A stretch of DNA of 64,000 bases from NCBI GenBank assembly GCA_009761415.1, contig QUOL01000033.1, positions 1 to 64,000 of the forward strand, given 5' to 3'. Shown in pieces: positions 585 through 18,037 of the stretch (the first letter of the stretch is position 1; every line of letters starts with the position of its first letter). The stretch is from Sarcomyxa edulis (taxonomy: Eukaryota; Basidiomycota; Agaricomycetes; Agaricales; Mycenaceae). The notes under the pieces were generated by a model that saw nothing but the letters and a program-made list of their open reading frames with translations, was not told the DNA's origin and made no database searches. Position numbers and translations under genes: made by a program.

Positions 585-1640
585 TTCTCTGTAGAAAAAA
601 GTTGTGATAATCAGTCTGATGATGCAGAGCACGACTCAAAAATGTAACACTTTCAAAAGTATCTTCGGCATCTTCCTGCATGCTTCAAATACCCTGGAGA
701 AAGTCATCGAAGCCCTCGCACACATAGGGATTTCAATCTTGATTCAAGCTATCCACAACACAATCTGCTCACTATCGCGCTGTGAGGATGCCAGCATCCC
801 CAGCCAAGGAATCAACAACTATACAACAACCTACTCTTATGCGACTCCCCAGACATAGCTAACTACAGAGATATTGGTGATATTACCACAAACAACTTGC
901 TTTTTGAATGTCCGGACACTGAAAGACACCAAGTACCCGCGACTTGACGGTTTCTCCCCGAAAGCGGCCTCTTCATCCACTCACAAAACGCTAACCCGCC
1001 TTCGGTCACGTCTCAGAACGTTTTGGAATACCTGAAATCACACACGAACAACTTCTCCGAAGGAAATCTACCACCAGAACCCAATTCCCTATCGTCGTTT
1101 CACCTGACCGAAAGCCCAATGTACTCGATCACCTCTCCGCAGCCCCCTAGATCCTTCGGACAGATCCCAAATCGTTTCAGCAGGCTCCCTTTCATCTCTA
1201 GAAGACCTCATCGAGAGATACTTCACCGACAAAACATTGCCACCAGTCGACATACGCCAACGTGATGCTTGCTGCCCTGAGCTGTTCTTCCCTATCAAAT
1301 CGGACATATTCCCTTTACATTACAATCTCAATTCACACCTTTCCATGCATCTGGACGCCTCGTTAAGGCCTCCGTTCACCCTGACCAAGTGGTGCTACGG
1401 AATATGCTTCCCTCTGTGTTTATCACATGACACAGCACTTGTAAGCGAGGTATCGCCCGCTAACAAAGACACTACAGGTCTCCGCCTAGCAACCCACATC
1501 AAATTCACTCTTCTCGGACAACTTTGGCCGTCGTATCTTGGAAAAATCTATCGGAAGCTCCCTATCATCCTGCTCACTCGGACATGTTTCATCCCTTCAC
1601 AAATTCACCTTGCAACACTTTCAGAGAGCCATGGTGGTAA
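585..1640. other. no convincing gene
   Basis: Only short open frames occur here (for example 604-858 and the start of one at 1237) with no recognisable motif. The stretch may be decayed remains of the gene at 157-584 or plain flanking sequence of the mobile unit that begins at about 1641. Confidence 0.4.
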
Positions 1641-1714
1641 TATACAGTCTAACAGTCCTGGCTACAGCCAGTGGAAATTTTTTATTAAACATGGCTGTAG
1701 CCAGGCCTGTGGCT
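1641..1714 (+). repeat. left terminal inverted repeat (candidate)
   Basis: Starts TATACAGTCTAACA, contains the near-palindromic GGCTACAGCCAG and ends CAGGCCTGTGGCT. It pairs with the reverse complement of 15839-15911 at roughly 60 of 74 positions, with one gap. The core words AGTCTAACA, TGGCTACAGCCAG, GAAATT and AGCCAGGCCTGTGGCT are identical in both. Confidence 0.65.
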
Positions 1715-1884
1715 GTGCATGCTCCTCAGAGGTCCAGCACCCGATTTTCCCTCAGCTTGGTCAGCCAAAGTCCGGGACTTCCACCCTGGCCTTACACATG
1801 TACAAACAGAAGACCATGAATATAATAATAATAATATTCGGGCTGGTAGGCTTCCTACACAAAATGAATGCTATTAATGGACTT

Positions 1885-1960
1885 TCTTCTTCGGCTTGTT
1901 CCGATCGGATTCAGCTAGCCACGCCGCCGATTTGGACCTTTGGCTAGGTCCGAGTTAGCT
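1885..1960 (+). repeat. subterminal direct repeat, copy 1
   Basis: About 75 bp containing TTGTTCCGATCGGATTCAGC and GCCACGCCGCCGATTT. It is nearly identical to 2243-2317, 358 bp away. It lies just inside the left inverted repeat, where DNA transposons often carry repeated transposase-binding motifs (inference). Confidence 0.7.
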
Positions 1961-2242
1961 AGCCAGCGCTCAATTTCTCCTCTCTGTCTCGGACAGGTCA
2001 CAGTGGGTTGGCTCTGCTCCGGGTTCCACAATACAGGTCAGGTCCATCTCCGCCAGCTCGGACTTGGCCAAACCTGAGGAACTATCCTATGGCTGGTATC
2101 CGGGGAGGTCTTGGTAGCTGATCCCCTGGGGGGTACATTTGTGGCATTTGTGGCGCACTGGCTGAGTTGGACCTGGCCAACCATCAAAGTAGAGCCTCTG
2201 GCTAACATTTTTCCCATCAGATCTACGCTATTTACGGATTGC

Positions 2243-2317
2243 TCTTCTCGGCTTGTTCCGATCGGATTCAGCTAGCCACGCCGCCGATTTTGACCTCTGG
2301 CTAAGTCTGAGTTGGCC
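2243..2317 (+). repeat. subterminal direct repeat, copy 2
   Basis: Second copy of the 75-bp repeat at 1885-1960, roughly 90% identical by eye. The sequence between the copies also repeats the words TTGGCCAA/CTGGCCAA. The interval 1715-2467 otherwise holds no gene. Confidence 0.7.
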
Positions 2318-2467
2318 GACAGACCCACATAATCCGTGGCTCTCGGAGATCATCTTCGAAGAATTATTCTAAGTCCAAATTTCGAAAATTTCTTGCTGGA
2401 TCTTCAGTCTCTCTGTTGAATGACACTGAAAATATAAAATGGCATTGTACATTGATATCTTGATACG

Positions 2468-5400
2468 TTATATGCTGCCTCTACAGGCTAGCATTCCCCA
2501 GAGTGTCCAGCCTACATCCAGGACAGCTTCTTCCCAATCCACAATAGGGCCTACAACTTTCACTCCGTCGACTTTACCTTGCACCGAACATCCCCACCAA
2601 TAAAGACAAGCAACGACCCCTAAGAAGCCGTTAGCCCCAGGGCAGTTCAGTGACTCCCAGTCGTCGCCGTACTCCTCAATCTTCGAGGGCCAATCCGATG
2701 CACTCTCAAGTTCGCGCCACTTTGGCTGCAACGAAATCCACCACTCAAGCCACGTATTTCCGAACGACTCGGTATTCGTCACCAGTGTTGACGCACCGCC
2801 GCGCCCGCGTCCGTCTATTATCCAGACCGTGAGCTGAGCGGGCCTTCCAGCCTTTGGAAACCCGCGTTTTCCATTTTTGAAGTCGTTCGAGACTTCGAGC
2901 TTGATGAGCAAATCTATTAAGTTGCGGAAGGGTTGCCCGAGGTCAATGGACGTCAGAATTGTCAATGGTGTCCGTAGCCAGTTGGGTGCGTTGTCGGGAA
3001 GCTTGATCTCCTTCCCTACCGATTCCTTGTTGCGGTCGTTGAAGAAACGTTTATCGACACTAGGAGAGTCACGGAGGCTCTCGTCGAGAGGGGGTGGGTT
3101 TCCGACGTCGCCAGCCGCAGGTTTGCGGACGTTTAGGGAAGAGGTGTTGGAGCTGTCATTGTGCAGACCGTCTTCACGTTCGAGAGTGGAGTCGAGAGGA
3201 GTTCCAGAATCGACACCAGGGTTGCGAACATCAGGAACAGGAGTGGGAACATCCCTGAGTGCCGGCCTTCCAAAACCAAGATGTCGCTCCCTTTCGGCAG
3301 TGCGACGAAAGGTGTTAACACGTTGGAGATGGCTGGAAACGTTTCCAAGATCGACAAGGCCGGGGCAAACCTCAGGGGAATCTGGCCGGTCGGTGTGAAC
3401 ATCGAGGGAGTTGGTGCGAACATCAGGGGAATTGGTGCGAACATCAGGGGAACCTGGCTGGTCGGTGCGAACATCAGGTGATTCTGATTGTCCGACGCCA
3501 ACTTCAATGGAGGAGGGTTCGGGAATGGGGGGAACTACACTGCTGAGTCGGGAAACATGAACATCAGAGGGGAAAGAGTGACTTCCTGCGTTCGTGCCCG
3601 CGAGAACAGTCCCCTCGCCCGTATCCACATTCATGGCTGTGTCGTCCAGCCCTCTATCGCTGACGCTAGGCTCTAGCATGTCTTCATCGCCGCCGTTCTC
3701 CGTATCCTGCCTATCGTGTTCAGCCGTTCCTCCTCTATCAGCTGCCGTTCCCTGACCCCCCTTCTCCCCAGAGCCGCTTGCTGCCCCTTCTGTGGACGGT
3801 ATAGACTGGAGCCCTCGTGTAGACCGTCTTGGAGGCTCTGTCGGTACGATTCGTTCCCTCCTCCTTGGTTTTGGCCTCGGCTGTTGAACGTCGTCTGCAG
3901 CCTTTGTCTTTCCAGATATAAAACTGGCGGCGTGCCTAAGCTCGAGCTCGTCCAGAAGGCGTTGATTGGCTGCGATGTTTTCGTTTCTGATTCTCTCGTA
4001 CTCAGAAATGATGGGGTTGGATCTGGATGTGCTGGGTTTGGGAGAGGCGGTCTGCGACGACAGGCCTTGAGTCGATGGTGCATTTTTTGCCAGGGATGGG
4101 GTCTTCTTCACTGCCGTCGTCTTCGTCTTTGCTGCCGTCGTCCCCTTCAGCACCGTCTTCCCCGCCATTGCACCTGCAGGCATGTCTCCCAACTGTGCTC
4201 TTTTCCTCTTTTTTGTTCGCTTTTTCATCGCCTCCTCCTCACTATCGACGTCGTCGTCGTTGTCGTCTGAGGATGACGACGAGTTGCTATCGGAGTCGCT
4301 GTGCCCAGGCACCATATCTTCGTCGTCTTCGTCCAGATCCATACGGTATTTGGCTTGCAACAATGGGTCGTCCGGAGCTAATGCCGCTGCAGCTTTATCC
4401 TCATCAGCTGTTTTGCGTGTAGTTAGTATTGAAGTCTAGACATCGAATGAATACATGATGTACTTACTGAAGCAGGTCTGCAGGTAGCCCTCGAATAGCG
4501 CGCTAACGTTCTTTTGATAGCGCTCAGGCTGCCATCCCGCAAATGAGACCGGATTCAGTGAATTGTTGAGCGATTTGGTTATGCTGAAGCACATTATCGA
4601 ATGAGCACATCAATTTAACCGTAGCGAACAGAAGAAAACTTACGTCAGACAACCAATCTCCCCCCCTTGATCCGGCATGCATCCACCGACGAGTACCACC
4701 ATATGCATCCCAGTGAAGTCCTTGACGCCTTGGAAGATCGGTGTGAAGAATGCTCCAAGTCGATTGATACATCTGAGAGATGCAGAGTTAGCCTTGAGAT
4801 CGAAGATACACGGATGAAGGAGACGCTCACCTTTGTCGATCTGCTGGTGCCTGCGATGGAGGGGTGGACATGGCCGTCTTATACTGCGCATTAGCCTGAT
4901 CACGATCTGCTTCTGCCCTTTCCACAAGACACGCCTTCTGGTCCTCTGGTAACGCGTCGTATAGCTCCTTGGCAATTTTGCAACGAAATGCAGCGGTAGG
5001 GTTGCCAGTCGTGCTCGGGTTTGCAGCCGTGTGCTCTGCCCATTGTTCCATGACCTTCGGATGAATCTCCTGCTTTTGGTTCTCGTGCATATATTGCTGA
5101 TATCCCTGGCGTCGTTTCTGGGGAGGAGCTTTGACACCGGACAACTTCGCCATCAACAATGCTAGCGGATCGTCTTTGAAGTTCACGCGCTTGGCCATCG
5201 CGATTTTTTTCATCCGCTGTACGCGGTATTGAAGCCAACGTCGGATAGCCTGATAACACTAGCATCAATCTTTGCGATAGAACACGCGCCAAATGATGAA
5301 AAGAGAACGCACCTTATTTTTCTGGCGTATATGGTCTCCTCGTGCAACTTGCTCTTCCGCTGTCAACTCCTCTACCACAGGGGGCGCGTTGATGTTGTAG

Positions 5401-5633
5401 ACAGGCAGAGGTAAGTCCGGTTCTTCGTCGTCCGAGAGTCTCCAAGAGATGAGAGTATGATATTCGTTGCAGACGCGATTGAAGTAATCTCGTTCGGCTG
5501 TCCATCCAAAACGCATCGAGTCCGCGTACTTCTCAACATGAGGTAACAGGATGGTCTCACGACAACCTTCGGCCCATAGCTTCTGATTGCGCCGCTCCTT
5601 TTTGGGGATGCGCTTGTATTTTCGGTTTCCCAT
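2468..5633 (-). CDS. HMG-box-like protein with conserved Trp-rich C-terminal domain (transposon cargo)
   Basis: Five exons on the minus strand splice exactly in phase: 5633-5313, 5249-4831, 4772-4644, 4583-4468 and 4407-2468, giving 974 residues. The ATG at 5633 starts a basic N-terminus (MGNRKYKRIPKKERRNQ). Residues ~128-230, with ALPEDQKACLVERAEADR, look like an HMG-box-type helical segment, suggesting DNA binding. Residues ~345-480 are acidic/serine-rich with Lys/Arg runs, like a nuclear linker. A short PDVRT-type tandem repeat lies at ~635-670. The last ~200 residues form a compact domain rich in Trp (LEWWISLQPKWRELE, CPGANGFLGVVACLYWWG). I have the impression this recurs in agaricomycete repeat families, but I know no function for it. 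The gene is transcribed away from the viroplasmin gene across a 220-bp gap. It is intact, so likely expressed or recently mobile. Confidence 0.75.
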
Positions 5634-5853
5634 TCAATGTAGACACTTTGTTCGAATCAAGTTCAGCAACAACAATTAGATGTTAAGAGAACTCACAATT
5701 GATTTGATCCACTGAGCTGATATGTAGTATTTTATGTCTTAGAATTTGCTTGCAATATGCACGGATGCAGCCACGTGCGTACTGCTCGGAGATTCAAGCT
5801 CCGCCCCTTCATCATCGATTCAGATCAGATAACGATTTTCAGTCCCCACCACG
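5634..5853. promoter_or_regulatory. shared divergent promoter interval
   Basis: These 220 bp separate two head-to-head ATGs (5633 minus, 5854 plus), so both promoters must lie here or overlap the genes. I see AT-rich words (AGTATTTTATG near 5728) but no certain TATA or operator. Confidence 0.45.
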
Positions 5854-7218
5854 ATGGATCTGCTTGTAGCCTACACAAGCGCCATCCGTCTTGACTCCTC
5901 CTCACAGCATGAATATTGCATGCCCACGTATTATCCTGGATCAGTCACTGGGAACGCGCGCTACTACGTTGTTACGTTTGGACGCGTCACTGGGATATTT
6001 CGAAGCTGGTACGTTCTCTTCTTCTCTCTCAGATTAGCACAATCTTGATTCCCAGCAAGGCTTATCGTCAAGCCACTTGTCCTTGGCTTCTCTGGCAGTG
6101 CTCACAAGAAGTTTAGTACTGCAGACGAGGCTATCGAGAGATGGCGAGAAAATTGTCTCGTATACCACGCGGACGGCGATCACCATCCTGAGCAGGCCGA
6201 ACTCAGAAAGGCGAGAAAGTTCTCCGTCACATTACCTCCCCCTGTCTCCCTTGAGGAACTTCGTGAGCAGATTATCGAGCGACAAAATCGTCTAGCAACA
6301 CCCTTGACTCCTACAAAACCACCCCCTGCCTACCGTACCCCGACTTTCCCCACTCCTTCCACCCCGGTCAAAACCCCGACTCCTGCTTACACTCGCTCTG
6401 ATTCCCCAACACCTCCCCCCCGTACTCCTTTGAAAACCGTGGTCAAACCGTTGCCGTCCGTCATCAGTGCTTCAACTTTACCTGCTCGACGTGATCCAAC
6501 ACTACCAACTCCTACAAAACGATTGACATCAGTACATGGAAGAGTCCTGTCATCCGGATCATTAAGGTCGCCATCGCCAGCGCTGATGCAGCAGCCATCG
6601 TCAAGCCCAGCCAGGAGTTCATCGGAGAGCCTCACTCGTAGCTGGAGTCAGTCTACAAGTCCCCCTAGCTCCGCTGTTTCTTCTAGCCCTACGGTTACCC
6701 AACCTCAGGGCAGGTCTTCAGCACGAAGGCCTCCGAGGAATGTCTACGGAGTATCGTTTGGGTCGTTCCGCAATGCGATATTCAATAATCGGTATGTGTA
6801 TTGTTCCCCGATATGCGCACACTCAATGCTTACCTCCATTTCATATTAGAGAGTCAGCCTATAGTTTATACAGGCTATTTTATCAGTCGTCCTCCCGTCC
6901 AGGCTTCCATGTGGGTTCCTTTGAGGATGTCGTTGCCGATATGACACGAGGTTGGGACGACACATTTTTCTCCTTCGTTCAGGGTGAAGGTCACGTCCTC
7001 ACCTATAGCAGCATGTAAGTATCTCGTACCCATTCCGCGCGTATGTTATACTAACCGTACTTTACAGTGATCTCGCCCATGCCAAATTCGATTATCTCTG
7101 CTCAGAGATCGAAATCGTCGAGATGCTGCTCGATGAAACCTTGCAGGGCACGGAGAGACACGAGGAGCACAACTGTGAAGATCATGATTGGGTAAACTGC
7201 CCTGAGACTTACAGTTAG
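5854..7218 (+). CDS. viroplasmin / RNase H1 N-terminal-domain-like protein (transposon cargo)
   Basis: Four exons (5854-6008, 6060-6791, 6850-7014, 7068-7218) splice in phase to 400 residues. Residues ~35-85 read ARYYVVTFGRVTGIFRSW, then VLGFSGSAHKKFSTADEAIERW. This fits the viroplasmin/RNase H1 N-terminal fold (YaVxxGrxxGIFxsW, VxGFsGaxxKkFxtxxEA), which in RNase H1 binds RNA:DNA hybrids and dsRNA. There is no RNase H catalytic domain. A Pro/Ser/Thr-rich linker (~110-285) follows, then a short globular C-terminal part (NVYGVSFGSFRNAI..., GFHVGSFEDVVADMTRGWDD). The acceptor of intron 1 (CAAG|G at 6059/6060) was chosen because it restores the Trp codon and the frame. A nucleic-acid-binding role is inferred from the domain; the partner is unknown. 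Confidence 0.7.
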
Positions 7219-8229
7219 ATGGGTTCCGTAGGCTCGTACTGGCGTTTTCCCTCCCCCTCTATACAAGTAGATATGCATCGTAGCAATATACATCCCTTCT
7301 TCGTCACTTCTGGTCTCTCAATTAAGCTTGAATATCGCCCGCCTCATTGACTAGTTTACTGCATCTGCCCATAGGCATGTCATGTAATGAAACTGTATAG
7401 AGATTGTATTTCGTGCACTCTCAGTCTGTAGAACTAGTTCAAAACAAAGTGAATGGTGTGTAGGTTTTGTAGACGCTCCCCTCGACGCTCGTAGACGCTC
7501 CCTCATCTTTTGATGGTTGGAGCAGCCCAAGCAAGATATGCAGTCTCAGCGTCTGTGCGAAGCCTTTGCCTCCCGACCCCAAACTGTACGGTGCAAATGA
7601 GTATATGGTGCCAATAATCGTGACATTGGCTAACCAAGTGAGCTGGGTATCCTGCGACCCCTGCAAATTGGGAGGAGTGTAGGTCTGAAGTCGACTAACA
7701 ACATACTTGAACTCACATACCGTTGCGAGCCACTGTCAATCCTCCCTGAAATTATGTCTTCAACATGGATCTAAACCCTCAAAGCGACAATCCAGCACAA
7801 ATGATGCCTATGAGAGAGGTTGTACGTATACGCTCGAGATGCGATTGAAGGTATGTGAAGGCGAAGTGTGGATCTGGTGTAAGAGCAAGAAGCTAGGTTG
7901 TGAGAGCAAGAAGCGATGTTGGTGCATTCAATTCCCCTCTAGAAAGACACATGAATGATTAGAATTGCAGAAATCGAAGGGTACATTACCTGACACGGTG
8001 ACGATGCGATGTATATGGTGTATAGTACAAGAGAGAGGCTGCGAACACGGTCACATAAATGGTGCGAACGGACGCGAACAAGGTGCGAACGGGCTCCAGA
8101 CGCGACACTTGTTGCGAACAAAAGTCGCGAACACGGACAAAAATCGCTGCTTTTTCCATACATTCCCCTTGCGGAATGCCAAACACACTTTGATCTCCTT
8201 CAGCTCGCTCGCTCATTCATTTCTAGCTC
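7219..8229. other. 1-kb interval without a supported gene
   Basis: Several short frames exist on both strands (for example 7439-7666 minus, 7707-7958 plus) but none carries a recognisable motif or a convincing splice chain. Its notable content is the GCGAAC cluster just upstream of the next gene. Confidence 0.4.
8040..8136 (+). promoter_or_regulatory. cluster of six GCGAAC motifs
   Basis: Six copies of (T/C)GCGAAC occur within about 100 bp, roughly 95-190 bp upstream of the ATG at 8230, all in the same orientation (for example GTGCGAACGGACGCGAAC). This density is far above chance for a 6-mer. It could be a protein-binding array controlling the downstream gene or a transposase-site array; no factor is identified. 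Confidence 0.45.
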
Positions 8230-9321
8230 ATGACATCCTCAACGTCAAGGAAGTCAAACAGGGCAAAGGCAAAAGCTAAGGCCAAAACAAAGACTAAAAC
8301 AAAATCGAAGGGGAATTCTCAATCAAAAGGGACGACGAACTTGAATGATAGTTCAGGGAGCAACAAGAGTCAGTCTGCTAGGAAAAGCGCCGCATATTAC
8401 GCCAAGTACGTTGTTATGACTTCTCCTCAACCCTTCATTTCTCATCATTCTTGCACTAGTAATGCAGCTATGCTACGAGAAAAGGCGAAGCTTCGGATGC
8501 GCAATATTCGAGCTTCTCGAGCAGCAACGGTGCAGCCTCAAGCTCCAGCTCCAGCTCTCAATCAAGACCTTCCTCAGGATCCCGAACCGACACCTCTGCC
8601 AGTGCATCTACACCATTCCCCGTCCAGTCGCTCCCCTAGCTCCTCTCCTCTTCCTGAAGATCTAACTCGGGAATCATCTTTATCTTTGGATCTTCATCCA
8701 TCTCGGTCTCTTCAATCCCGTCAACTCCCTCGTTCCCCTTCCCCTGATCTTCCACCTCGTTCCCGATCTCCCTCTCCAACTCGTAGGTCGAGACAAGTGG
8801 ACGACCGTTTTATAGATCCTCGCCTCAGGTTGACTCGTATGGAGCTTGACGATTGCGACCTACAGGGTGTCGATCTGGATCTTGAATTCGATCTCACAAA
8901 ACTTCCATATGAATTCGATATCCAATTCGATCACTTCAACCTGTCACACAACGCTGACCTCCTGGACCATTTCGACCCGGAGGATGAGTTCTGGATGGTT
9001 ACTCATAGGCGATGTGTTGGAGAATGGGCCAGTAGATGGGGACACACTTCTTGCTGGGCGCAGGAGATCAAGTGTGGCTACCATCGTCTTCGTACAGAGC
9101 GGGACAAGGAACAGTTCGTAACCACCGTATCAGCCCACGCTTTACAGGGCCGTATAATTGTCCACCAGCTCAAGGGTATATTAGATATGCGAGACCCCCC
9201 GAAGGAAGACTGGCATTTGAGGGAATTGTGGAGGACTTCGATGGAGTTGTTGGACCCCATGTATCGCGGGCTTGGGATCATCGATGCTTGGTTGGATTTT
9301 CTACGCGTAGTCGCCTTCTAG
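8230..9321 (+). CDS. hypothetical basic/acidic protein with YYAxN-LREKAxxRM motif (transposon cargo)
   Basis: Two exons (8230-8405, 8460-9321) joined by a 54-bp GTACGT...CTAG intron give 345 residues. The N-terminus is a Lys-rich repeat (AKAKAKAKTKTKTKSK), followed across the splice by AAYYANNAAMLREKAKLRMR. That motif looks like a short basic helix; I believe similar motifs occur in other mushroom repeat-element proteins, though the role is unknown. Then come a Pro/Ser-rich, SR-like linker (~115-195) and an acidic, aromatic C-terminal domain (~200-345) with FDPEDEFWMVTHRRCVGEWA. It lies 455 bp upstream of the TET/JBP gene on the same strand. The intron is a multiple of three and open, so a retained-intron form would also be translatable. 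Function is not known. Confidence 0.6.
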   Translation: MTSSTSRKSNRAKAKAKAKTKTKTKSKGNSQSKGTTNLNDSSGSNKSQSARKSAAYYAKYVVMTSPQPFISHHSCTSNAAMLREKAKLRMRNIRASRAATVQPQAPAPALNQDLPQDPEPTPLPVHLHHSPSSRSPSSSPLPEDLTRESSLSLDLHPSRSLQSRQLPRSPSPDLPPRSRSPSPTRRSRQVDDRFIDPRLRLTRMELDDCDLQGVDLDLEFDLTKLPYEFDIQFDHFNLSHNADLLDHFDPEDEFWMVTHRRCVGEWASRWGHTSCWAQEIKCGYHRLRTERDKEQFVTTVSAHALQGRIIVHQLKGILDMRDPPKEDWHLRELWRTSMELLDPMYRGLGIIDAWLDFLRVVAF

Positions 9322-9776
9322 TCAATGTAGCATCTATCTGTATTCCATACCATATGAGTCCAAGGGACATAGATCGATCGCCCACGCACTGCAGCTGGAA
9401 CTACTCAGCTCGAGATGTTGTAGTGTGGACGCGACTTGATCACGTGTGCGTGTCCATACCGTGATCTCCGAGTCCGAGTTTAATTTTTTTTGCATCTTCC
9501 TGATTCTTCCAAGTTCCAACTCTCCTTGACCGGTCTCAACGAGCTACCTTCTCGCACACTTTCTTTATTTCTCCACAGGCTAGGTATCTAGTGGCAGGTG
9601 CCCACTGAGGTAAGTTGATTTTATAGCTGCAATATAATCTGGTGAATTCCTGAGTAACCCGTACACTGAGCCTAACCCATGGGTACTACGGCGGGGAGCT
9701 TGGGGGTTGTGCCTTCTTATATTGATGTGAGGTGCTATCCAGACTGACTTCTTACTTCACAGACAAGTACCTCAAA

Positions 9777-11693
9777 ATGCCTCGAACTGTAAGAGCCCTA
9801 CCCTCCACAAAACGTAAAACTGACTCCCAGGGGATTTAGACGCATAGAGGGACCGAATTCTCGCCTTTCTCGCTGGAGGGCGTCCTTCCTTTACGCGTAG
9901 ATGTACATTTGGGCTCCTTAATCAAACGCGCCAGACAGGACGAAATTCAGCGAGACATCCAAGGCGTAGGGGATAATGAAGGCATGCCTTTATCATACGA
10001 ATCGCAGTGCATCTCGCCCGCTGCATCCAGGCGTTCCTCAACGTCATCCCTCTCCGACTGCCTTTCTGAAATGTCCCTTGATCGCGCCGTTGAGACATTG
10101 CCGCCACACTCCTTATATTCAACCCCAGACGAGATCGACGCGTTTTCATCCCCCATTCCTCCGCAATCCAGCTCCCCTATCCCAAGCTCCCCTGTGGCAT
10201 ACGTGTGTTCATCCCCTCTACGTCCAGCTTCCACCATGTCACGCTCGGTTTCTCCAATCCCTTCGTCCTCGCAGCCAGCATCTCCCATGTCCTCTCGAGC
10301 GTCGCTGGGCCCAACTCTACCAACTCCTGCCAATACACCTCTCTACTCAGGAATTGAGCGATCTCGTGCAAGAGCGCAAGCACACAAACGACGCCACCAG
10401 AAGGCGATGAAACGCGCAGAGCGCAATTCGCAGCCGTCCTCTGCCGTCAGGTATTGTGTTCGCTCATCCACGTCAATCAAGTACGCCAAACCTACACAGA
10501 TCAAGTCGGCCTTGAGCATCAACAATCTGCCCACCACTCGCGGCTCATTCACTGGGCTGCGCCAGAAGGTGGTGAGGAAGCGGCCTTTCCAGGTCAACGA
10601 GTTGATCAATAGGGGATTTAGTCTTCGCAAATGGGATGGGCGGTAAGCCGCACTGGCCATTGTTCCCCCCTTCTACTTGTACTAATACAGTCTCACCAGA
10701 TCAACACACGTCATAACAGACGTGGCGCAACGCATCATGGTCACCCTCGTAGGCTATCCCAAGGATAATCCTTCGTCGACTTCAAAACCTTGGACTGACG
10801 TAGCAAGCGGGGCTGCGGAAGTCATCGATTTAACTCGTACAGAGGAGGGCATACCTCCGCGTCGCCATCGTAGAGGTAATTTTGCGGCCTTGGCATGTGG
10901 CGTTTCGTTTGGTGGAGGGCAGGAGGTAAGTTTGCTTTCTCTTGCCCTCTGTGCACATGTAGGGGTTGACGTTGCGTTCAAATAGCGCCCAGGAATTCTG
11001 CAATACTCGGACAGATCGTCGTACAGGGCAGTTCAGGTCCTGCGAGGGAACTCGGACATTAATCGGATTGCAAGGTTCCAGAACAGCAAGTGTATTCTCA
11101 TCAACGCCTTGAGCAGTACTAACAAACTTACAGGTGCATTTGCATATTACTATCCGAGGATACATGAGTACTATGAGACGTCCCTGAACAAACTGTACGC
11201 GCACCATCCAGAACTGACGCGTAACTTCAGCGGGAGTGTCTTTCCTGCTGCTACTATCAACGCTGGTCCGAACACAGTCTCGGTAGTCCATGTCGACTCG
11301 GGTAACCCGCCTGGTGGCATATGTGCCCTGACAGCCTTAGGAAACTACGACTATGTCAAGGGCGGCCATATAGTCCTTTATGATCTGAAGCTTATCATCG
11401 AGTTTCCGCCGGGTGCTACCATCCTTTTACCATCAGCAAGCCTTCGCCATGGGAATACCCCCGTCGCTCGTGGAGAGTCAAGATTTTCGATGGCGCAGTA
11501 CTGTTCAGGTGGCCTTCTACGTTGGGTTTCTTACGGCTTCCGTACCGCAGCTGATTTGTTGAAGTCAGAGGGAGGCGCGGAGGCTAAGAGAGCTATAGAC
11601 GGTGAGGATGACTCACGATGGAAATGGGCCGTTGGACTTTTTTCGAAGCTGGACGAATTGGAAGCAGATCATACAGAGGTACGTTCTCATTGA
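9777..11693 (+). CDS. TET/JBP-family 2-oxoglutarate/Fe(II) dioxygenase (5-methylcytosine oxidase candidate)
   Basis: Five exons (9777-9788, 9840-10642, 10700-10925, 10986-11085, 11134-11693) splice in phase to 566 residues. The first exon encodes only MPRT. Residues ~20-180 are disordered and Ser/Pro-rich. The catalytic domain runs from ~265 (DVAQRIMVTLVGYPKD, then CGVSFGGGQ, RIARFQNSAFAYYYPRI) to ~525. The HxD iron pair is HVD at residues 433-435. The distal His is in ASLRHGN at 486, and the 2-oxoglutarate-binding Arg is in GESRFSMAQY at 497. These match the fungal TET/JBP pattern. TET enzymes oxidise 5-methylcytosine in DNA, and a Coprinopsis member is reported active. Activity of this copy is inferred. 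Intron 4 (11086-11133) is a GC-AG intron with a perfect TACTAAC branch point. The stop lies 163 bp before the KDZ transposase ATG. No stop or frameshift is seen. Confidence 0.85.
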
Positions 11694-11856
11694 CCAATAC
11701 ACCTGTCGGAGTCGAATACGCTGTGATAGACCTACATATAACTAATGAAATGTCAAATATTGAGATCGGATTCGAGAAATCTTCTAAGTCCAATCCGAAT
11801 TCCGAGCCGACGTTGCTTTTTTCCAGCTTCCTCCGGTCCTCTCCCACGCCTGTCAA

Positions 11857-14800
11857 ATGTTATCCCCAAGTAAACCCCGACGTCGAGGTCGCGTTGCTCG
11901 CGTCGACGATGGCACTGTTTCTAGGTCAACAACTAATGCAAGCAGGCCAGCTCACCAGACGATCACAATATCAGCCGATGGTCTTCGTCAAACAATCACT
12001 GGAAATCACTCTACGAAAAGACAACGAATAAACCCTGAGGATCTCAGCGATCCATACGCAAACTGGGTCCCGGGACATCTTGACGCGGATACAAACGACG
12101 AGGGGGAAGGACATTATGAGTCAGATGACGAGATAGGCTCAGTGCCGGAGGTGACGGTGAACATCGCTAAACGGAAGCGGTACCTTAGTTCGGTGAGCAT
12201 CCCCTTTCAATTCCCTGAGGTCTGCTAACCATTGCAGCCTAGGATAACCCTATGATGATATGGCGCAGGTACGACCAGGAGTTCTTGGAGGAGCTACTAC
12301 AACACGAAGGTCTTGGATCGGACACTCCCTCCTGCTGCTCTTGTTCCACTGGCTCTGAGTCACGTCCCTCAACGCCTGGCCCGGATAACGACCGGGGGGG
12401 TTCGTTCATTCGCTGTCAAGATTGTTGCGCAGGGTTCATTGAATGCACTGATTGCTGTATCACCCGCCACCAGCACCTCCCTTTTCACCGCATTGAGGTA
12501 CGCTCTATATTGTTCCACTTGTTTCTGCTGCCTGACATTTTTCTTATTACTTGCACAGAGGTGGAATGGTTCTTTTTGGGAAGGAACAACGCTGAAGACC
12601 GTCGGCCTCGTGTACCAGCTAGGGCATCTGGGTGGAAAATGCCCTGCTCCAATCCTACCCTCCCTCGATCTCGTCGTAGTGGAAATCAACGGCATACACG
12701 AAATCTCTGCTCAAGAGTGCGGCTGCCAGCACTCAATAGCTGCAAAGTACATACAATTTCTCCGAGAACGTTGGTACCCTGCTACCGTCAGCAATCCCCA
12801 AACGTGCGCGACGTTTCGTGTTTTGGAGCTTTTTCACCAGCTGAATCTATCAGGCGGTATAAACGTCGCGGATTTTGTCGGGGCTTTGGAACGCCGGACA
12901 GATGGTACAGGGGTAAAGTCAACGCCGGTAAGATCTACCATATGTATATTGAGAGTGTTCTAATGATCTGAATTACCTAGGACAGATACAAGGCTGTTGG
13001 GCGAATGTTCCGACAGTGGACGTATCTTTTGCGCGCGAAACGAGCGGGGCGAGGTCACACATCAGAGGGCTGAAAAAGACAGGAGCAGGAGCATGCGCCG
13101 TCTTATGTTGGGCTTGTCCACATAACGGGATAAATCTACCAGCGGATTGGGAGTCGGTGGAACCGAGATGGAGGTACAGCCCTTACTTTTTAGCGCGTGT
13201 GTTTATTTATCCATGCTGCTTCGTTAACATAGGTTTCTCTATATGCTCATCCTCGCCATGGATGCGAACTTCCGGCTAAAAAATCGAATGAGTTCGACGG
13301 ACGCTGCTGATCCTGCCTTGGGACCTGGGTGGGCGTATTTCGTTAAGGACGAGCCCTACAAGGAACACCTCAAGAACTACGTATCCGAAGCTGACGTGAG
13401 TACACTCGCTCTCCTATCGATGATCTCACTAATTTGAGATCAGATAAGCACATGTATCGCATTCCAAGCGCTTCTGCAGAAGGACAGTAAAATGACTACA
13501 GGACTGCGCAGTTCAGGAGTTGGTGCATGCGTATGCGCTCGCCATGAATTGATTCGGGCACAGGGAATAGGAGATTTACAGAAAGGCGAGAGGTAAGTTT
13601 TTCATGATGCGTCAGGTGCTGGTACTCACCTAGGAATATCAGGTACAGTAACATGGACTACATATTCTTATCCGCCATCATCTGCATCTCGCTTTTATAC
13701 CTCACAATATCGTACGATGTCGCATGCCAGTGGAAGGTCAACTTGTGGGCACGTATCGCGAACATGCCCCAGGCTCTCCAGATCGACGCCACGAAGATCC
13801 ACGTACAGTTTGGTGTGCCAATATGGCACGCGTCGGCGCACGAGAGCTCTTGTCAGGCGGAGAATTCTCTTGGGTATCAGAAGGGCGTAGGACGAGCCTG
13901 TGGTGAGGGGATCGAAAGGACGTGGTCGAAGTTGAACGGAAGATCTTCGGCTACAAAGGAGATGGGCCCCGGTGGACGGCATGATACATTGGACGACGCC
14001 ATTGGTCGCCATAACTGGGAAAAGAATATCGGATTCGGTAAGTTTCTACAGACAGTTATGAGCGTATGCCATCGGTGCTGATCTGATTGAATTTAGGAGA
14101 CTCGCTTTCACGAAAGCTCCTGGTTGCAACAAGCGAACGAGCTCACCAGGTAGCCTGCTTCCTGGAAGTAAACTCGACATTATCGAAGGATTTGTCTCTC
14201 GAATGGAGGGGAATGGTGGATACTTGGGAGGCAGACAGGACTCAGCCCAACCCTTATGTGTCAGGCCGCAAAGGTACGAGGCCGTTTTTTGACCGTTATA
14301 AGCTTCTGACGACCACGCTCCCAGACGATTTGACGGAACCTCAGGTCCGCTTGCAACTGAAGGCCGACGAATTACAGGCAGCCCAGGATGGTGTCGAGCA
14401 AATATCAGGGTCAAGTGCGACAGCATTTCTTGTAGCAGGTCTCCAGCTCGAGGATACTCAGTAAGTAATTTACCTCATGCCGTGAAAATCCAGCTCACCA
14501 AACACCTAGACGTCGCATCCATGTGGAAGCTACGGGGGAAACTACCCTCACTGCAGATCAGGCGGCCGTTATCGTGGAGAAACGTATATCATTTCTAGTG
14601 AAGCTGAAGAGGTTTCGACAGCTGCAGAGGATCTACATGCCAGCTGCTGCTGAGATCCTTGCTGGTGAAGAAGCTCATCGTGATTCCACCACCGTGCCCC
14701 CTAGAGCAGAAGACGTCAAGTTATGGTTCCCATCCGATCTAGGTGTCGCAACTCGGGAGGGAGGGTGTCACAAAGGACTCGGAGACATGGAGGCAAAGCT

Positions 14801-15593
14801 ACGTGAGGCTCAATGCGCGGACGCATTAACGACCTTGCGTACACGTCTCCATGCTAAATCCCACCTGATCCTCTTTCGCAACGCCAACATGGTGGGTCAG
14901 GTAGCTACTACACGCTCTTGCAGCCTGATCTCCGCCATCAGCGACCGCGTCACTGCCTGCGCTATCAAATATCGACGTAGCCGAGAGGCCCTGCTCAGTC
15001 TCCGAGGACCCGACATGTACAAAGACCGTTTTCTGCCCCTGCTGGCATCAGACCTGCAAATGGATGCTCCGGACACCAGTGACATTGCGGCCCGACAAAA
15101 GCTATCCAGGGCTGGTGGAAACCGGGGCCCTCGTGCAACCAACAGCGCCCACAAGGTGCTATCGTGGATATGGACGGTGGAGGGCGGACCTTCCGTCGAT
15201 GAAAACGTTGCGCTGCACACATGTACGTGATCGTTTTGATTTTTTGTCCGCAGATAACTGACAAGATATCTAGCCGTTCGTGTTGAGTGGGCAAAGGCCC
15301 GCGCTCGTATGATGAGATGGAAGGAAGAGGTACACCTGCTACGCGAGGAGATGCGACGGGTGCTGCGATTCTTAGAGTGGCGGGTTACTTGGTGGGAGAC
15401 ACGCGAGGTACGATGGGAAGGAATTAGCCAGGAGGTCGGGGATGGACAGGTGGCATATGCGGCTCGACAGGCAACGATTCACAGGGAGATAGCCTTGTCA
15501 TTCAAGATGAAGTGGGACATGCCAGCAGCGCTTGCCGCCCGACATGCTGTCCTTGCAAACGACGTTGGGCTCGATGATACAATATTTCCGTAG
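11857..15593 (+). pseudogene. KDZ-family transposase with CxC2-like cysteine cluster, one-base frameshift
   Basis: Ten exons: 11857-12192, 12244-12497, 12559-12930, 12981-13173, 13233-13395, 13444-13592, 13643-14037, 14096-14460, 14510-15222 and 15274-15593. They total 3,260 nt, one short of 1,087 codons. The only break is in exon 4, where RGHTSEG runs into a TGA at ~13063 while LKKTGAGACAVLCWACPHN continues one base out of frame. The N-terminal part has a Cys/His cluster (CCSCSTGS, FIRCQDCCAGFIECTDCC) of CxC2 type. The middle carries LAMDANFRLKNR and YDVACQWKVNL, then WHASAHESSCQ and GEGIERTWSKLN. These are hallmarks of the KDZ RNase H-fold transposase, with the DxxCQ Asp and GIER Glu as likely catalytic acids. 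The C-terminal ~350 residues are helical. A single deletion or a sequencing error would explain the break. Confidence 0.88.
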
Positions 15594-15838
15594 TATTTCT
15601 TTAAAACAAATAATGTCTGCTTTGGGTTATATTCATGTCAAAAAATGGATTTTAATGCATATTTTCCCGGGAGTGGACATTTGGATATAATCTATTTGAA
15701 GGTCTGGAGGAGATATCCCTAAACGGGAACACAGGAGAGCATGGTACAAGAGGTGGTCCAGCATGTCCATGACTCGTATGGTGCATGCCTGACTAAGCCA
15801 TGTCCTGGGTACAGCCAGTGGACCACCGAAATGAACAT
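15594..15838. other. noncoding right subterminal region
   Basis: These 245 bp lie between the transposase stop and the right inverted repeat. They contain further copies of the CAGCCAGTGG and CATGTCC words also found in or near the repeats. No gene is seen. Confidence 0.5.
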
Positions 15839-15911
15839 AGCCACAGGCCTGGCTGCAGGCTTGTTAAATGAATAATTTCGGCTGGCTGTAGCCATGGTGT
15901 TAGACTTTATA
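15839..15911 (-). repeat. right terminal inverted repeat (candidate)
   Basis: The reverse complement reads TATAAAGTCTAACA...GGCTACAGCCAG...AGCCAGGCCTGTGGCT and matches 1641-1714 with about 80% identity. It ends 8 bp before the ATG of the next ORF, so the element end abuts or overlaps the start of the Gag-like gene. Confidence 0.65.
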
Positions 15912-15919
15912 ATACAGCC

Positions 15920-18037
15920 ATGGGTGCCCCTGGAGCAGAACGCGTCGCCGACTCCATAGCGGCGCCTAGAGCGCTGCCACCCACCCCTTCAGCAACGGCT
16001 CGTCCGACCACGACAACTGCCCCTCGCATCACTAACGCCAGGGGAGGGTACAATAACAACGTAAACAGAGGCGGATACCAGGGCTCCCCAGAACCACAAT
16101 CGCTATCGCGCGATCGTCAGACTGGGAGGCGATCTTCATCCCCTCCAAGGAGATACGCAGACGTAGTCAGTGGACCCAATCGTTCACGAGACTACCCTCC
16201 AATGCGGCCGCGTTCCCCAGAACGAGGGCCTCGATGTCGTGCATCCCCCGATAGACTGTCGGAGCGCCGGATTAGAGACAACGAGCGAACACCCCGATAC
16301 ACAAATTATCGGGAGGACAGTCGCGAACGTGAAACACGCCTGAGGAACAACGCCATGGACACTATCCGCGACCGGGACAGACGTGACGGTCAGTATGGTA
16401 AGAGACCTGAACGTGGTCCCTATGCCGCGGACAGATCTCCAGTCCGACCCACACAAGCGCCCGCTGCTGCGGTAGTACAACCAGTACCAAATCCAATCCT
16501 CGCGCCAGCAGACATCAGGAAAGCTGCTCGTAACGACGACGGCCACCCTGTCGGCCCTTGGTCTAAATATCGCGGAACCAGTTACTCGGCGGGTGAGGTC
16601 CCCGACAAATCTGACTACGGTTCAGAGGAGTCGGACGACTCGGCAGTGGGGGAATCTCTCCGCGCTAACAAACGTCTCCGGCTCCACGCCGCGGAGAAAC
16701 GTAAGCGCGCCATGGAACGGGATGGCAAGACCATCAGCACTACAACGGTAGCTCCCATGGACCCAGCCAAAGTCGGTGTATGGTTTGGCCTACGCGTCAA
16801 TACCATCCCTCACGCAAAAAACTTGCTGGACTGGGTAGCCAGCGGTGACGAATCGTCTTGGGAATTCTTCCTATACTTACGACATAAGATGGGAGTCGAA
16901 CACCTGTACGAGAAAACCGTTGGCGAAGCCTGGGTCAGCAAACATCAAGGGAGGTACCAGAGCTTGCGCGAACAGGCCACTGGTATACCGTTTGAGTCAA
17001 AATCCAAACGGAGCCAGCGACGCCGCGCAGCTGAATCTCGCCAGTCCCGGGATGGATCCTCTCGCAGTTCGACAGCAGCTAGCTCTGCAAATGTGGCGGC
17101 TCACGAGCGCGAGCTGGGAGCTACCCTACGCTCGTACGACCGTCCGGAACCAATTACTGAAATTTTGGACGTACCAACCGTCAAGAATACGCATCCCAAC
17201 ATTGATGCTTCCCCGGCGGTTCTCAACGCCTACTACAATGAGCGAAAGGCTAGTACGTGGCCTAAGGGGATGCGCAATGAGGACTACAACTGGTCTACCC
17301 TGCTCTACGACCGGGTTCTAACTGATGATGCACACGCGTGGCTCATCATACAAACCCTCGCTCCCGGGGATGTGGGCGGGTCATTCAGGTCCCATACCCA
17401 CCATAACTTCGTGACGATTACCACCATCCTCTTTTCCATCCCAGGGCATTACACCCGCCTCGTCAACCTTGGACAGTACCCAATCTTGACTACGGCGCCA
17501 GAACATTTCCCGTTCCTTACCGAAAATCTGACGACATGTCAGGCCGCTGCATGGTTTGCATCCCACGGCGTTACGACCGAGGGGTATGACTATCACTGTC
17601 TGCTTGAATTCTGTCGCTCCCGTCGCAATGCGGTGAACGGCAGCTCCAGCCCCAACCGTGTCGAGTTCAAAGATAATATACAGCCACGAACAGTCACCGA
17701 CGTCCTGCGCATCAGGGACGAGGAAGTGACTGCGTGGCGGGATATATTATACGACGCCATTGCACCAAAGATGTTGTCTACATATCCTCGCCGTCCGAGT
17801 GAGATGACCGGTCTGGAAGGTCCGAAGTTACTACCGCCCCTTCCTGCGGCCACTGTCGACAATATCGATATGGCCGACGCCACGAAGGTTATACCGGCAG
17901 CCCCCGTGGGTGGCGAAGTTGCAACTGAATCCGCGGTGACACACTCGGCAGCCCCACCTGTAGTCACCCCCGTCATTGACGATGTCGAGTCCAACGTATC
18001 CGGATCATTGAGTACACCCAGCGGTGATACTCTGTGA
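15920..18037 (+). CDS. Gag-like ORF of an LTR retroelement (non-autonomous candidate)
   Basis: A single uninterrupted 705-codon frame. Residues ~1-165 are very rich in Arg, Ser and Pro (RDRQTGRRSSSPPRRY, SRDYPPMRPRSPERGP), as in an RNA-binding Gag tail. Residues ~230-560 are helical (DWVASGDESSWEFFLYLRHK; DDAHAWLIIQTLAPG), and the C-terminus is disordered. No CCHC knuckle, protease or reverse transcriptase is present. The Gag label rests mainly on context: 145 bp downstream come a polypurine tract and an LTR in the same orientation, which places this ORF inside an LTR element without pol. The ATG sits 8 bp beyond the right inverted repeat, so the true N-terminus and any 5' LTR may have been displaced. 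It could instead be an unrelated host-type repeat protein. Confidence 0.5.
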   Translation: MGAPGAERVADSIAAPRALPPTPSATARPTTTTAPRITNARGGYNNNVNRGGYQGSPEPQSLSRDRQTGRRSSSPPRRYADVVSGPNRSRDYPPMRPRSPERGPRCRASPDRLSERRIRDNERTPRYTNYREDSRERETRLRNNAMDTIRDRDRRDGQYGKRPERGPYAADRSPVRPTQAPAAAVVQPVPNPILAPADIRKAARNDDGHPVGPWSKYRGTSYSAGEVPDKSDYGSEESDDSAVGESLRANKRLRLHAAEKRKRAMERDGKTISTTTVAPMDPAKVGVWFGLRVNTIPHAKNLLDWVASGDESSWEFFLYLRHKMGVEHLYEKTVGEAWVSKHQGRYQSLREQATGIPFESKSKRSQRRRAAESRQSRDGSSRSSTAASSANVAAHERELGATLRSYDRPEPITEILDVPTVKNTHPNIDASPAVLNAYYNERKASTWPKGMRNEDYNWSTLLYDRVLTDDAHAWLIIQTLAPGDVGGSFRSHTHHNFVTITTILFSIPGHYTRLVNLGQYPILTTAPEHFPFLTENLTTCQAAAWFASHGVTTEGYDYHCLLEFCRSRRNAVNGSSSPNRVEFKDNIQPRTVTDVLRIRDEEVTAWRDILYDAIAPKMLSTYPRRPSEMTGLEGPKLLPPLPAATVDNIDMADATKVIPAAPVGGEVATESAVTHSAAPPVVTPVIDDVESNVSGSLSTPSGDTL

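What the first reader, a model, noticed from the sequence alone, without database searches (positions are those of the whole stretch)
1641..15911. A 14.3-kb KDZ transposon that carries a TET/JBP DNA-demethylase-type gene and three further cargo genes
Seen directly: ~74-bp imperfect inverted repeats at both ends; five genes inside; a recognisable KDZ transposase and TET/JBP dioxygenase in tandem 163 bp apart. Known: TET/JBP and KDZ genes co-expanded in basidiomycetes (Iyer and colleagues, 2014). Inference: the whole block moves as a unit, and the cargo (HMG-box-like, viroplasmin-like, basic YYAxN protein) is an accessory kit, perhaps to erase host cytosine methylation over the element or to bind nucleic acid. 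The complete cargo set and boundaries may be undescribed.
Basis: partly seen in the sequence, partly recalled or inferred. Interest (0 to 1): 0.9.

Follow-up and report, generated by a model that had tools for sequence, protein, structure and literature searches.

The report
Five-gene mushroom transposon carrying TET enzyme
This stretch of a mushroom-type fungal genome is a 14-kb jumping gene element that carries, besides its own transposase, a DNA-demethylase-type enzyme and three further conserved genes, and sister copies show that the whole block has moved recently as one unit.

Summary
The element spans window 1626-15926 (14,301 bp), not 1641-15911. It has ~92-bp imperfect terminal inverted repeats and five genes: HMG-box-like A, RNase-H1-N/"viroplasmin" B, basic "YYANN" C, TET/JBP-like D, CxC2-KDZ transposase E. 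Unit mobility is shown by sister copies: 6 of the 8 complete copies examined sit in their own exact 7-bp target duplication, and two 16,182-bp copies at different sites differ by one base. Three colinear families show purifying selection on all five genes. The window copy itself has mismatched flanks and a 1-bp transposase frameshift (real, or an assembly error), so it is a poor exemplar.

TET-carrying Kyakuja transposons are already published (Kojima 2025; Iyer 2014, recalled). What looks additional: these inverted repeats, A+C cargo conserved in a divergent family, TET-less siblings that keep A+C and also moved, and a TET with Asn and Cys where CcTET has Gly331/Asp337. Anti-silencing is the likeliest role of the TET but is inferred, not shown; CpG content gives no support. 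Verdict: real, a new variant of a known kind.

The parts
1626..15926 (.). Whole KDZ (Kyakuja-like) element, 14,301 bp, 5'-GAGCCATGG...CCATGGGTG-3'
   Evidence: Ends fixed by where homology between independently inserted sister copies stops; colinear with C1a, C2a/b
1626..1717 (+). Left terminal inverted repeat, ~92 bp, with two palindromic GGCTRYAGCC motifs (1660, 1693)
15836..15926 (-). Right terminal inverted repeat, with one exact GGCTRYAGCC motif (15884)
1870..2316 (.). Left subterminal non-coding region with two 90-nt direct repeats (1870-1959, 2227-2316; 84% alike); the left ~1.38 kb, which includes the end of gene A, is 80-84% identical across families
2468..5633 (-). Gene A, HMG-box-like protein, 974 aa, exons 5633-5313, 5249-4831, 4772-4644, 4583-4468, 4407-2468; conserved C-terminal domain encoded at ~3010-2468
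5854..7018 (+). Gene B, RNase H1 N-terminal ('viroplasmin', PF01693) protein, 351 aa, exons 5854-6008, 6060-6791, 6850-7018
   Evidence: spliced ORF; PF01693 46.1 bits vs cut-off 21; dN/dS 0.25/0.30
8230..9321 (+). Gene C, basic 'YYANN' protein, 345 aa, exons 8230-8405, 8460-9321; no Pfam match at E <= 0.1
   Evidence: dN/dS 0.20/0.15
9777..11693 (+). Gene D, TET/JBP-like dioxygenase, 568 aa, exons 9777-9788, 9840-10642, 10700-10925, 10986-11091, 11134-11693; Fe/2OG residues HxD...H...R, Asn at H+5, Cys at H+11
   Evidence: dN/dS 0.13/0.07
11857..15593 (+). Gene E, KDZ transposase with CxC2 cluster, 11 exons 11857-12192, 12243-12497, 12559-12927, 12981-13173, 13233-13395, 13444-13592, 13643-14037, 14097-14273, 14325-14460, 14510-15222, 15274-15593; 1-bp deletion near 13066 relative to C1a, C2a, C2b
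   Evidence: dN/dS 0.06/0.04
1619..1625 (+). Left flanking 7-mer TTTCAGA; read through uninterrupted in two other copies of the host repeat, but not repeated at the right end
15927..15933 (+). Right flanking 7-mer CCCCTGG; does not match the left one, so no target-site duplication in this copy

Best explanation
The block is one copy of a cut-and-paste DNA transposon of the KDZ superfamily, Kyakuja-like by its 7-bp target duplication. SHOWN: five genes lie between ~92-bp inverted repeats; sister copies of the whole block inserted at independent sites with exact 7-bp duplications; all five genes are kept by purifying selection; TET and transposase have mostly been inherited together across loci. 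INFERRED: the CxC2-KDZ transposase binds palindromic motifs in the inverted repeats, cuts, and inserts with a 7-bp stagger. The HMG-box-like protein A bends DNA or chromatin to bring the distant ends together or to expose them. The TET oxidises 5-methylcytosine (possibly N6-methyladenine) over the elements, so that their genes are expressed and their ends cut despite host methylation. It can work in trans, because TET-less siblings also moved. B and C are accessory nucleic-acid-binding proteins. The window copy is rearranged at its right flank and, if its frameshift is real, cannot make transposase.
For: Exact TSDs at C1a CGAGAGA, C2a TGGCGGC, C2b CTTTGAG, C40 GAAGGAC, C38 GAGAGAT, C34 CCGAATA. 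C2a vs C2b 1 difference in 16,182 bp. Colinear families, 67-86% identical in the aligned pieces. dN/dS 0.04-0.30 for all five genes against two families. TET within 5 kb of a KDZ match at 18 of 24 loci where ~1.4% of the genome lies that close; C within 5 kb of A at 13 of 13 loci; A within 10 kb of KDZ at 12 of 16 (loci include near-duplicates). TET and KDZ distances correlate over 14 loci, r 0.83, Mantel p 0.0002. TET fold best matches CcTet, NgTET1, CMD1, TET2; HxD kept in 13 of 14 loci, Asn at H+5 and the 2OG Arg in 14 of 14. TET-less siblings C38 and C34.
Against: The window copy and its duplicate lack a TSD and share a 1-bp frameshift in the transposase. TET-less copies moved, so TET is not needed in cis. 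CpG observed/expected is 0.92-0.93 in TET+ elements, 0.95 in a TET-less one, 0.93 in the adjoining repeat, 0.83 in the whole left flank and 0.88-1.03 in the rest of the window, so there is no clear mutational sign of heavy methylation or of relief from it. The TET scores under Pfam's cut-off and the whole-genome Tet_JBP search does not list it. The TET and KDZ trees are not fully congruent: the C21 locus groups with C3/C10/C16 by TET but not by KDZ. The HMG model is low confidence (mean pLDDT 57) and Foldseek gave no match at E <= 0.001 for it. No expression, methylation or activity data exist here.
Confidence: 0.8

Rival explanations
1. The TET is not an anti-silencing tool of the element but a base-marking enzyme: it oxidises DNA so that element ends or new insertion sites are recognised by the transposase or shielded from nucleases, and methylation relief is incidental.
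For: The substrate loop differs from CcTET at Gly331 and Asp337, so substrate and product cannot be assumed; Kojima also leaves other DNA modifications open for diverged types.
Against: TET-less siblings with inverted repeats of the same type moved, so the mark is not needed in cis. The fold is closest to 5mC/6mA oxidases.
Confidence: 0.2
2. The cargo genes are passengers caught between the ends; only transposase and inverted repeats matter, and the cargo persists because copies are young.
For: B is found only in this subfamily; the TET gene is missing from C38 and has no match within range at C34; C1a's gene C has a stop codon.
Against: All cargo genes show dN/dS 0.07-0.30 between families with dS above 1; A and C persist in the divergent C40 family and in TET-less copies.
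Confidence: 0.1
3. The window block is a segmental (subtelomeric or haplotig) duplication of a dead composite, not itself a clean transposition product: left and right halves were joined by recombination between two copies.
For: Flanks are shared over ~19 kb with C1 (99.6%) and partly with C19; left and right 7-mers do not match; the left site is intact elsewhere, and the right flank is found only at this locus and its duplicate apart from weak partial hits.
Against: It explains this copy and its duplicate only; six other copies are clean insertions.
Confidence: 0.6

Closest known systems
TET+ Kyakuja DNA transposons of Agaricomycetes (Kojima 2025, PMC12730594; parts 1-5 of 7 of the text read, supplements not seen)
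   Same: KDZ transposase plus TET/JBP gene within one element; 7-bp target duplications
   Different: The two Laccaria families are described with CA..TG termini and no TIRs; here GAGCC..GGGTG with ~92-bp TIRs. Kyakuja TETs there keep Asp337 and Gly/Ser331; here Cys and Asn. Gene A, B and C types of cargo are not mentioned in the main text ('HMG', 'viroplasmin', 'cargo' 0 hits).
KDZ-TET/JBP-HMG elements of basidiomycetes (Iyer et al. 2014; not held, recalled abstract only)
   Same: TET linked to KDZ transposases with an additional divergent HMG-domain protein
   Different: As far as recalled no TIR/TSD-delimited element and no B or C gene; could not be checked
KDZ1-3 of Cryptococcus neoformans (PMC12810828, passages read)
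   Same: Mobile ~9-11 kb KDZ elements with long TIRs (139-241 bp)
   Different: 8-bp (4-8 bp) duplications, CxC1, no TET mentioned in the passages seen
KDZ elements of Marasmius oreades (PMC8290104, passages read) and Pleurotus ostreatus (PMC7641404, passages read)
   Same: M. oreades: TIR motifs of KDZ and Plavaka elements were characterised in a supplementary figure; P. ostreatus: intact KDZ transposases are preceded by a CxC2 cluster, as here
   Different: The M. oreades TIRs could not be seen, so likeness to ours is untested; no cargo of this kind in the passages
CcTET of Coprinopsis cinerea (PDB 7vpn, 7w5p, 8jkk)
   Same: Best fold match of the TET homologue; HxD...H...R
   Different: No significant sequence match of the window TET; loop Gly331/Asp337 replaced by Asn/Cys
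Helitron HELPO1.3 capE cargo in Pleurotus ostreatus (PMC4289320, passages read)
   Same: A PF01693 'viroplasmin' gene carried by a transposon
   Different: Helitron, not KDZ

Membership tests
KDZ superfamily transposon | KDZ transposase domain (PF18758) | tested here: met
   123.9 bits, cut-off 26.6
KDZ superfamily transposon | Cysteine cluster N-terminal to the catalytic domain | tested here: met
   CxC2 PF18803 119.3 bits, cut-off 27
KDZ superfamily transposon | Element delimited by TIRs and target-site duplications | tested here: met
   TIR alignment; exact 7-bp TSD in 6 of the 8 complete copies examined; the window copy and its duplicate C1b lack one
Kyakuja | 7-bp target duplication | tested here: met
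   as above; Kojima gives 7 bp for the two Laccaria Kyakuja families
Kyakuja | CA..TG termini without TIRs, as described for the two Laccaria families | tested here: not met
   GAGCC..GGGTG with ~92-bp TIR; the text read does not say that this is required of all Kyakuja
Kyakuja | Transposase clusters with Kyakuja in a tree | not tested
   no reference transposases at hand
Zisupton / Dileera | 8-bp target duplication | tested here: not met
   7 bp in 6 of 6 copies that have one
TET/JBP dioxygenase | TET-like double-stranded beta-helix fold | tested here: met
   homologue P0003 (53% identical over 87% of the region) model, pLDDT mostly above 90 in the core; CcTet E 2.7e-14, NgTET1, CMD1, TET2 next
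TET/JBP dioxygenase | HxD...H iron ligands and 2-oxoglutarate Arg | tested here: met
   window HVD, H, R; H, D, H invariant in the 28-row alignment (27 homologues plus the window), R in at least 90%; HxD in 13 of 14 own loci
TET/JBP dioxygenase | Tet_JBP Pfam score over the curated cut-off | tested here: not met
   19.1 bits vs 34.9, 17.6 for the spliced domain; 9 of 28 rows match at E <= 0.01; 0 genome matches over cut-off
AG-type TET of Kojima | Asp at CcTET 337 and Gly/Ser at 331 | tested here: not met
   Cys and Asn, both invariant in the 28-row alignment; CcTET letters
PE-type TET of Kojima | HxE in place of HxD | tested here: not met
   HVD
TET/JBP dioxygenase | Oxidises 5mC or 6mA | not testable with these tools
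   none
HMG box (gene A) | Three-helix HMG-box fold | tested here: inconclusive
RNase H1 N-terminal domain (gene B) | PF01693 over cut-off | tested here: met
   46.1 bits vs 21

The most novel reading that the evidence does not exclude
The A (HMG-box-like) + C (YYANN) + TET set is a co-inherited, element-encoded anti-silencing module: A and C bind the conserved subterminal repeats and bring a TET of a distinct subtype (Asn/Cys loop instead of the Gly331/Asp337 pair of CcTET) to the element's own ends. It would be the fungal counterpart of the sequence-specific anti-silencing proteins of plant Vandal elements, but acting through direct base oxidation; TET-less siblings parasitise the module in trans.
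Probability: 0.2. Interest if true: 0.85.

Novelty: new variant of a known kind. Interest (0 to 1): 0.52.

Why it matters
It gives a fully delimited, recently mobile element in which a demethylase-type gene travels with a transposase and conserved helper genes, together with natural TET-less relatives of a sister family. That set makes the open question of whether transposon-borne TET enzymes protect their own element, act in trans on all elements, or do something else directly testable by methylation mapping and reporter assays in one fungus.

Tried and rejected
Inverted repeats as chance or as MITEs: rejected. The 15 genome places found with either end are all ends of these elements. Five copies are complete; C19, C3 and C35 are cut by contig ends; C32 and C33 are near-duplicate loci (99.7%) of a fourth family truncated inside the TET gene (of C32 I held 20,000 of 35,599 bases, but the genome searches list no TET, KDZ or right end on it).

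CA..TG ends: at first I read the ends as CATGG..CCATG (1630-15922), from the paper's rule; the sister copies moved them out to GAGCC..GGGTG.

Stops in the KDZ gene of C1a and C2a: rejected as damage; they fall in an intron I had missed, with GT..AG in all three families. The KDZ dN/dS therefore includes 17 intron codons. C1a's gene C does have a stop.

Frameshift in the window transposase: left open. The duplicate C1b shares it, but C1b differs from the window copy at 37 alignment columns, 24 of them a missing C, 23 of those in runs of two or more, which looks like long-read assembly error.

CcTET relationship by sequence: no match with the single sequence or a 28-row profile; only the fold shows it. 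YYANN protein in other species: 2 unnamed hits only, so its spread outside this genome is untested. CpG depletion as a trace of methylation: uninformative. Nested insert boundaries in C2a: no clear duplication found. VIA list for gene A: absence of other families is not evidence against them. Literature: no listed paper was seen to describe B or C as KDZ cargo or these TIRs, in searches (listings, and passages of the papers I opened; one found nothing). The Iyer 2014 paper and Kojima's supplements could not be read, and the M. oreades paper says KDZ TIR motifs are in a supplement that I could not see.

Errors of mine: one search translated the KDZ exon in a wrong frame and is void; one search replaces it. 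One search's C2a intron line failed; one search replaces it. One search used 14 of the 18 TET-KDZ pairs (C1b, C2b and C39:1620k as near-duplicates, and C38:346k, left out).


Full report
WHAT WAS CHECKED. The window is contig C27:1-64000 of a 35.6-Mb, 40-contig assembly.

BOUNDARIES. The left end occurs ten times and the right end five times in the genome. Five copies are complete: C27 (window), C1b (C1:4120541-4134813), C1a (C1:166906-181096), C2a (C2:391115-407296) and C2b (C2:359162-375343, minus). Comparing their flanks, homology starts at GAGCCATGG and stops at CCATGGGTG in each, so the element is window 1626-15926. C1a, C2a and C2b each have an exact 7-bp duplication (CGAGAGA, TGGCGGC, CTTTGAG). 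The window copy has TTTCAGA at the left and CCCCTGG at the right. C1b has the same flanks, being a 99.6% duplicate over ~19 kb. The left site reads through uninterrupted in two other copies of the surrounding repeat; the right flank (15890-16700 searched) is found only at this locus and its duplicate, apart from weak partial matches. I infer that the right flank was rearranged after insertion.

MOBILITY AS A UNIT. C2a and C2b are 16,182 bp long and differ at one base, lie about 16 kb apart in opposite orientation, and have different duplications: the whole five-gene block moved recently. C27, C1a and C2a are three families that are colinear from end to end, 67-86% identical in the aligned pieces, with unaligned stretches between.

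THE TET. The Pfam score is below cut-off, and the genome-wide Tet_JBP search lists six other places but not this one. The model of homologue P0003 is confident in the core, and its best solved matches are CcTet, NgTET1, CMD1 and TET2. The catalytic HxD...H...R residues are present. Aligned without gaps to the CcTET letters, Gly331 becomes Asn and Asp337 becomes Cys; both are invariant in 28 rows (27 homologues plus the window), and in this genome Asn is kept in 14 of 14 loci and Cys in 13 of 14. From recall, TET2 has Asn1387 at the same spacing, contacting the methylcytosine. I therefore expect a TET2-like contact in place of CcTET's Asp337, but this is inference. Kojima reports Asp337 as conserved and Gly/Ser at 331 in Kyakuja TETs, so this TET does not meet that AG-type hallmark.

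OTHER FAMILIES IN THE GENOME. There are 48 KDZ loci and 24 TET loci (lower bounds, near-duplicates included); 18 of 24 TET loci lie within 5 kb of KDZ, where 1.4% of the genome does. TET and KDZ distances correlate over 14 loci (r 0.83, Mantel p 0.0002), so they were mostly inherited together; the C21 locus is discordant. A divergent complete element, C40 (13,781 bp, TSD GAAGGAC), carries A, C, TET and KDZ between similar ends. B was not found there; a second basic gene stands between A and C, and C is inverted. C38 (10,871 bp, TSD GAGAGAT) and C34 (TSD CCGAATA; only its ends were fetched, 381 of 383 left-end bases identical to C38) are siblings of C40 with A, C and KDZ but without TET: the C38 alignment to C40 jumps over the TET gene, and no TET match lies within range of C34. 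So A and C are tied to the transposition core more tightly than TET, and TET can be done without in cis.

HOW IT WORKS. The transposase acting on the TIRs and the 7-bp stagger follow from anatomy and the KDZ family. The copies of this subfamily share palindromic GGCTRYAGCC motifs confined to the ends; this motif was picked after seeing the data. A as a DNA-bending cofactor, and TET as an anti-silencing oxidase that also works in trans, are inferences. No clear CpG depletion is seen in elements, flanks or the rest of the window.

KNOWN OR NEW. TET+ Kyakuja transposons with 7-bp duplications are published (PMC12730594, parts 1-5 of 7 read). KDZ + TET + HMG was reported in 2014 (recalled, paper not held). 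Mobile KDZ elements with TIRs are known in Cryptococcus (passages), and KDZ TIR motifs were characterised in M. oreades in a supplement I could not see (passages). PF01693 cargo is known in a Helitron (passages). These 92-bp TIRs, the conserved C and B genes, moving TET-less siblings and the Asn/Cys TET loop were not met in the listings and passages I saw. I rate it a new variant of a known kind.

Noticed in passing
window 778-1625: A high-copy repeat (33 further ~850-bp copies among 40 scored hits, 92 candidates; 96-98% identical) ends at 1625-1627, where the element begins; its kind was not identified.
   Followed up: partly
window 15872-18037: 721-aa open reading frame directly right of the element, first ATG inside the terminal repeat; no Pfam match; its first part (to 16700) is present only here and at the C1 duplicate apart from weak hits.
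   Followed up: no
L020/L021, C2a element positions 5695-8371: A ~2.7-kb insert with 904-bp inverted arms (94.7% alike) lies between genes B and C in both C2 copies, so it was carried along in the recent move.
   Followed up: partly
L016/L017 (C1b) vs window 1626-15926: 24 of the 37 differing columns between the two duplicates are a missing C in C1b, 23 of them in runs of C, pointing to uncorrected long-read error.
   Followed up: partly
C14:272054, C12:112496, C30:22259, C9:559007, C4:310971, C37:1832563 (L044-L047 for four): Further TET-like places found by the Tet_JBP profile, none within 5 kb of a listed KDZ match; the C30 reading frame matches CcTET (E 2e-7), the C12 one matched no solved structure.
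   Followed up: partly
L053 (C40:73845-74426): TET copy with the iron-binding Asp replaced by Tyr and the loop Cys by Ser: probably inactive.
   Followed up: no
C38:346623, C21:93402, C3:1084779, C16:48295, C10:410319: Here TET and KDZ are back to back (divergent) instead of in tandem; the four sampled (C38 was not) form one TET clade, but C21's KDZ falls outside it.
   Followed up: partly
L035/L036 (C40 element): The C40 family has a second basic gene with a MARPRLY...RHYER motif between A and C, where this subfamily has B.
   Followed up: partly
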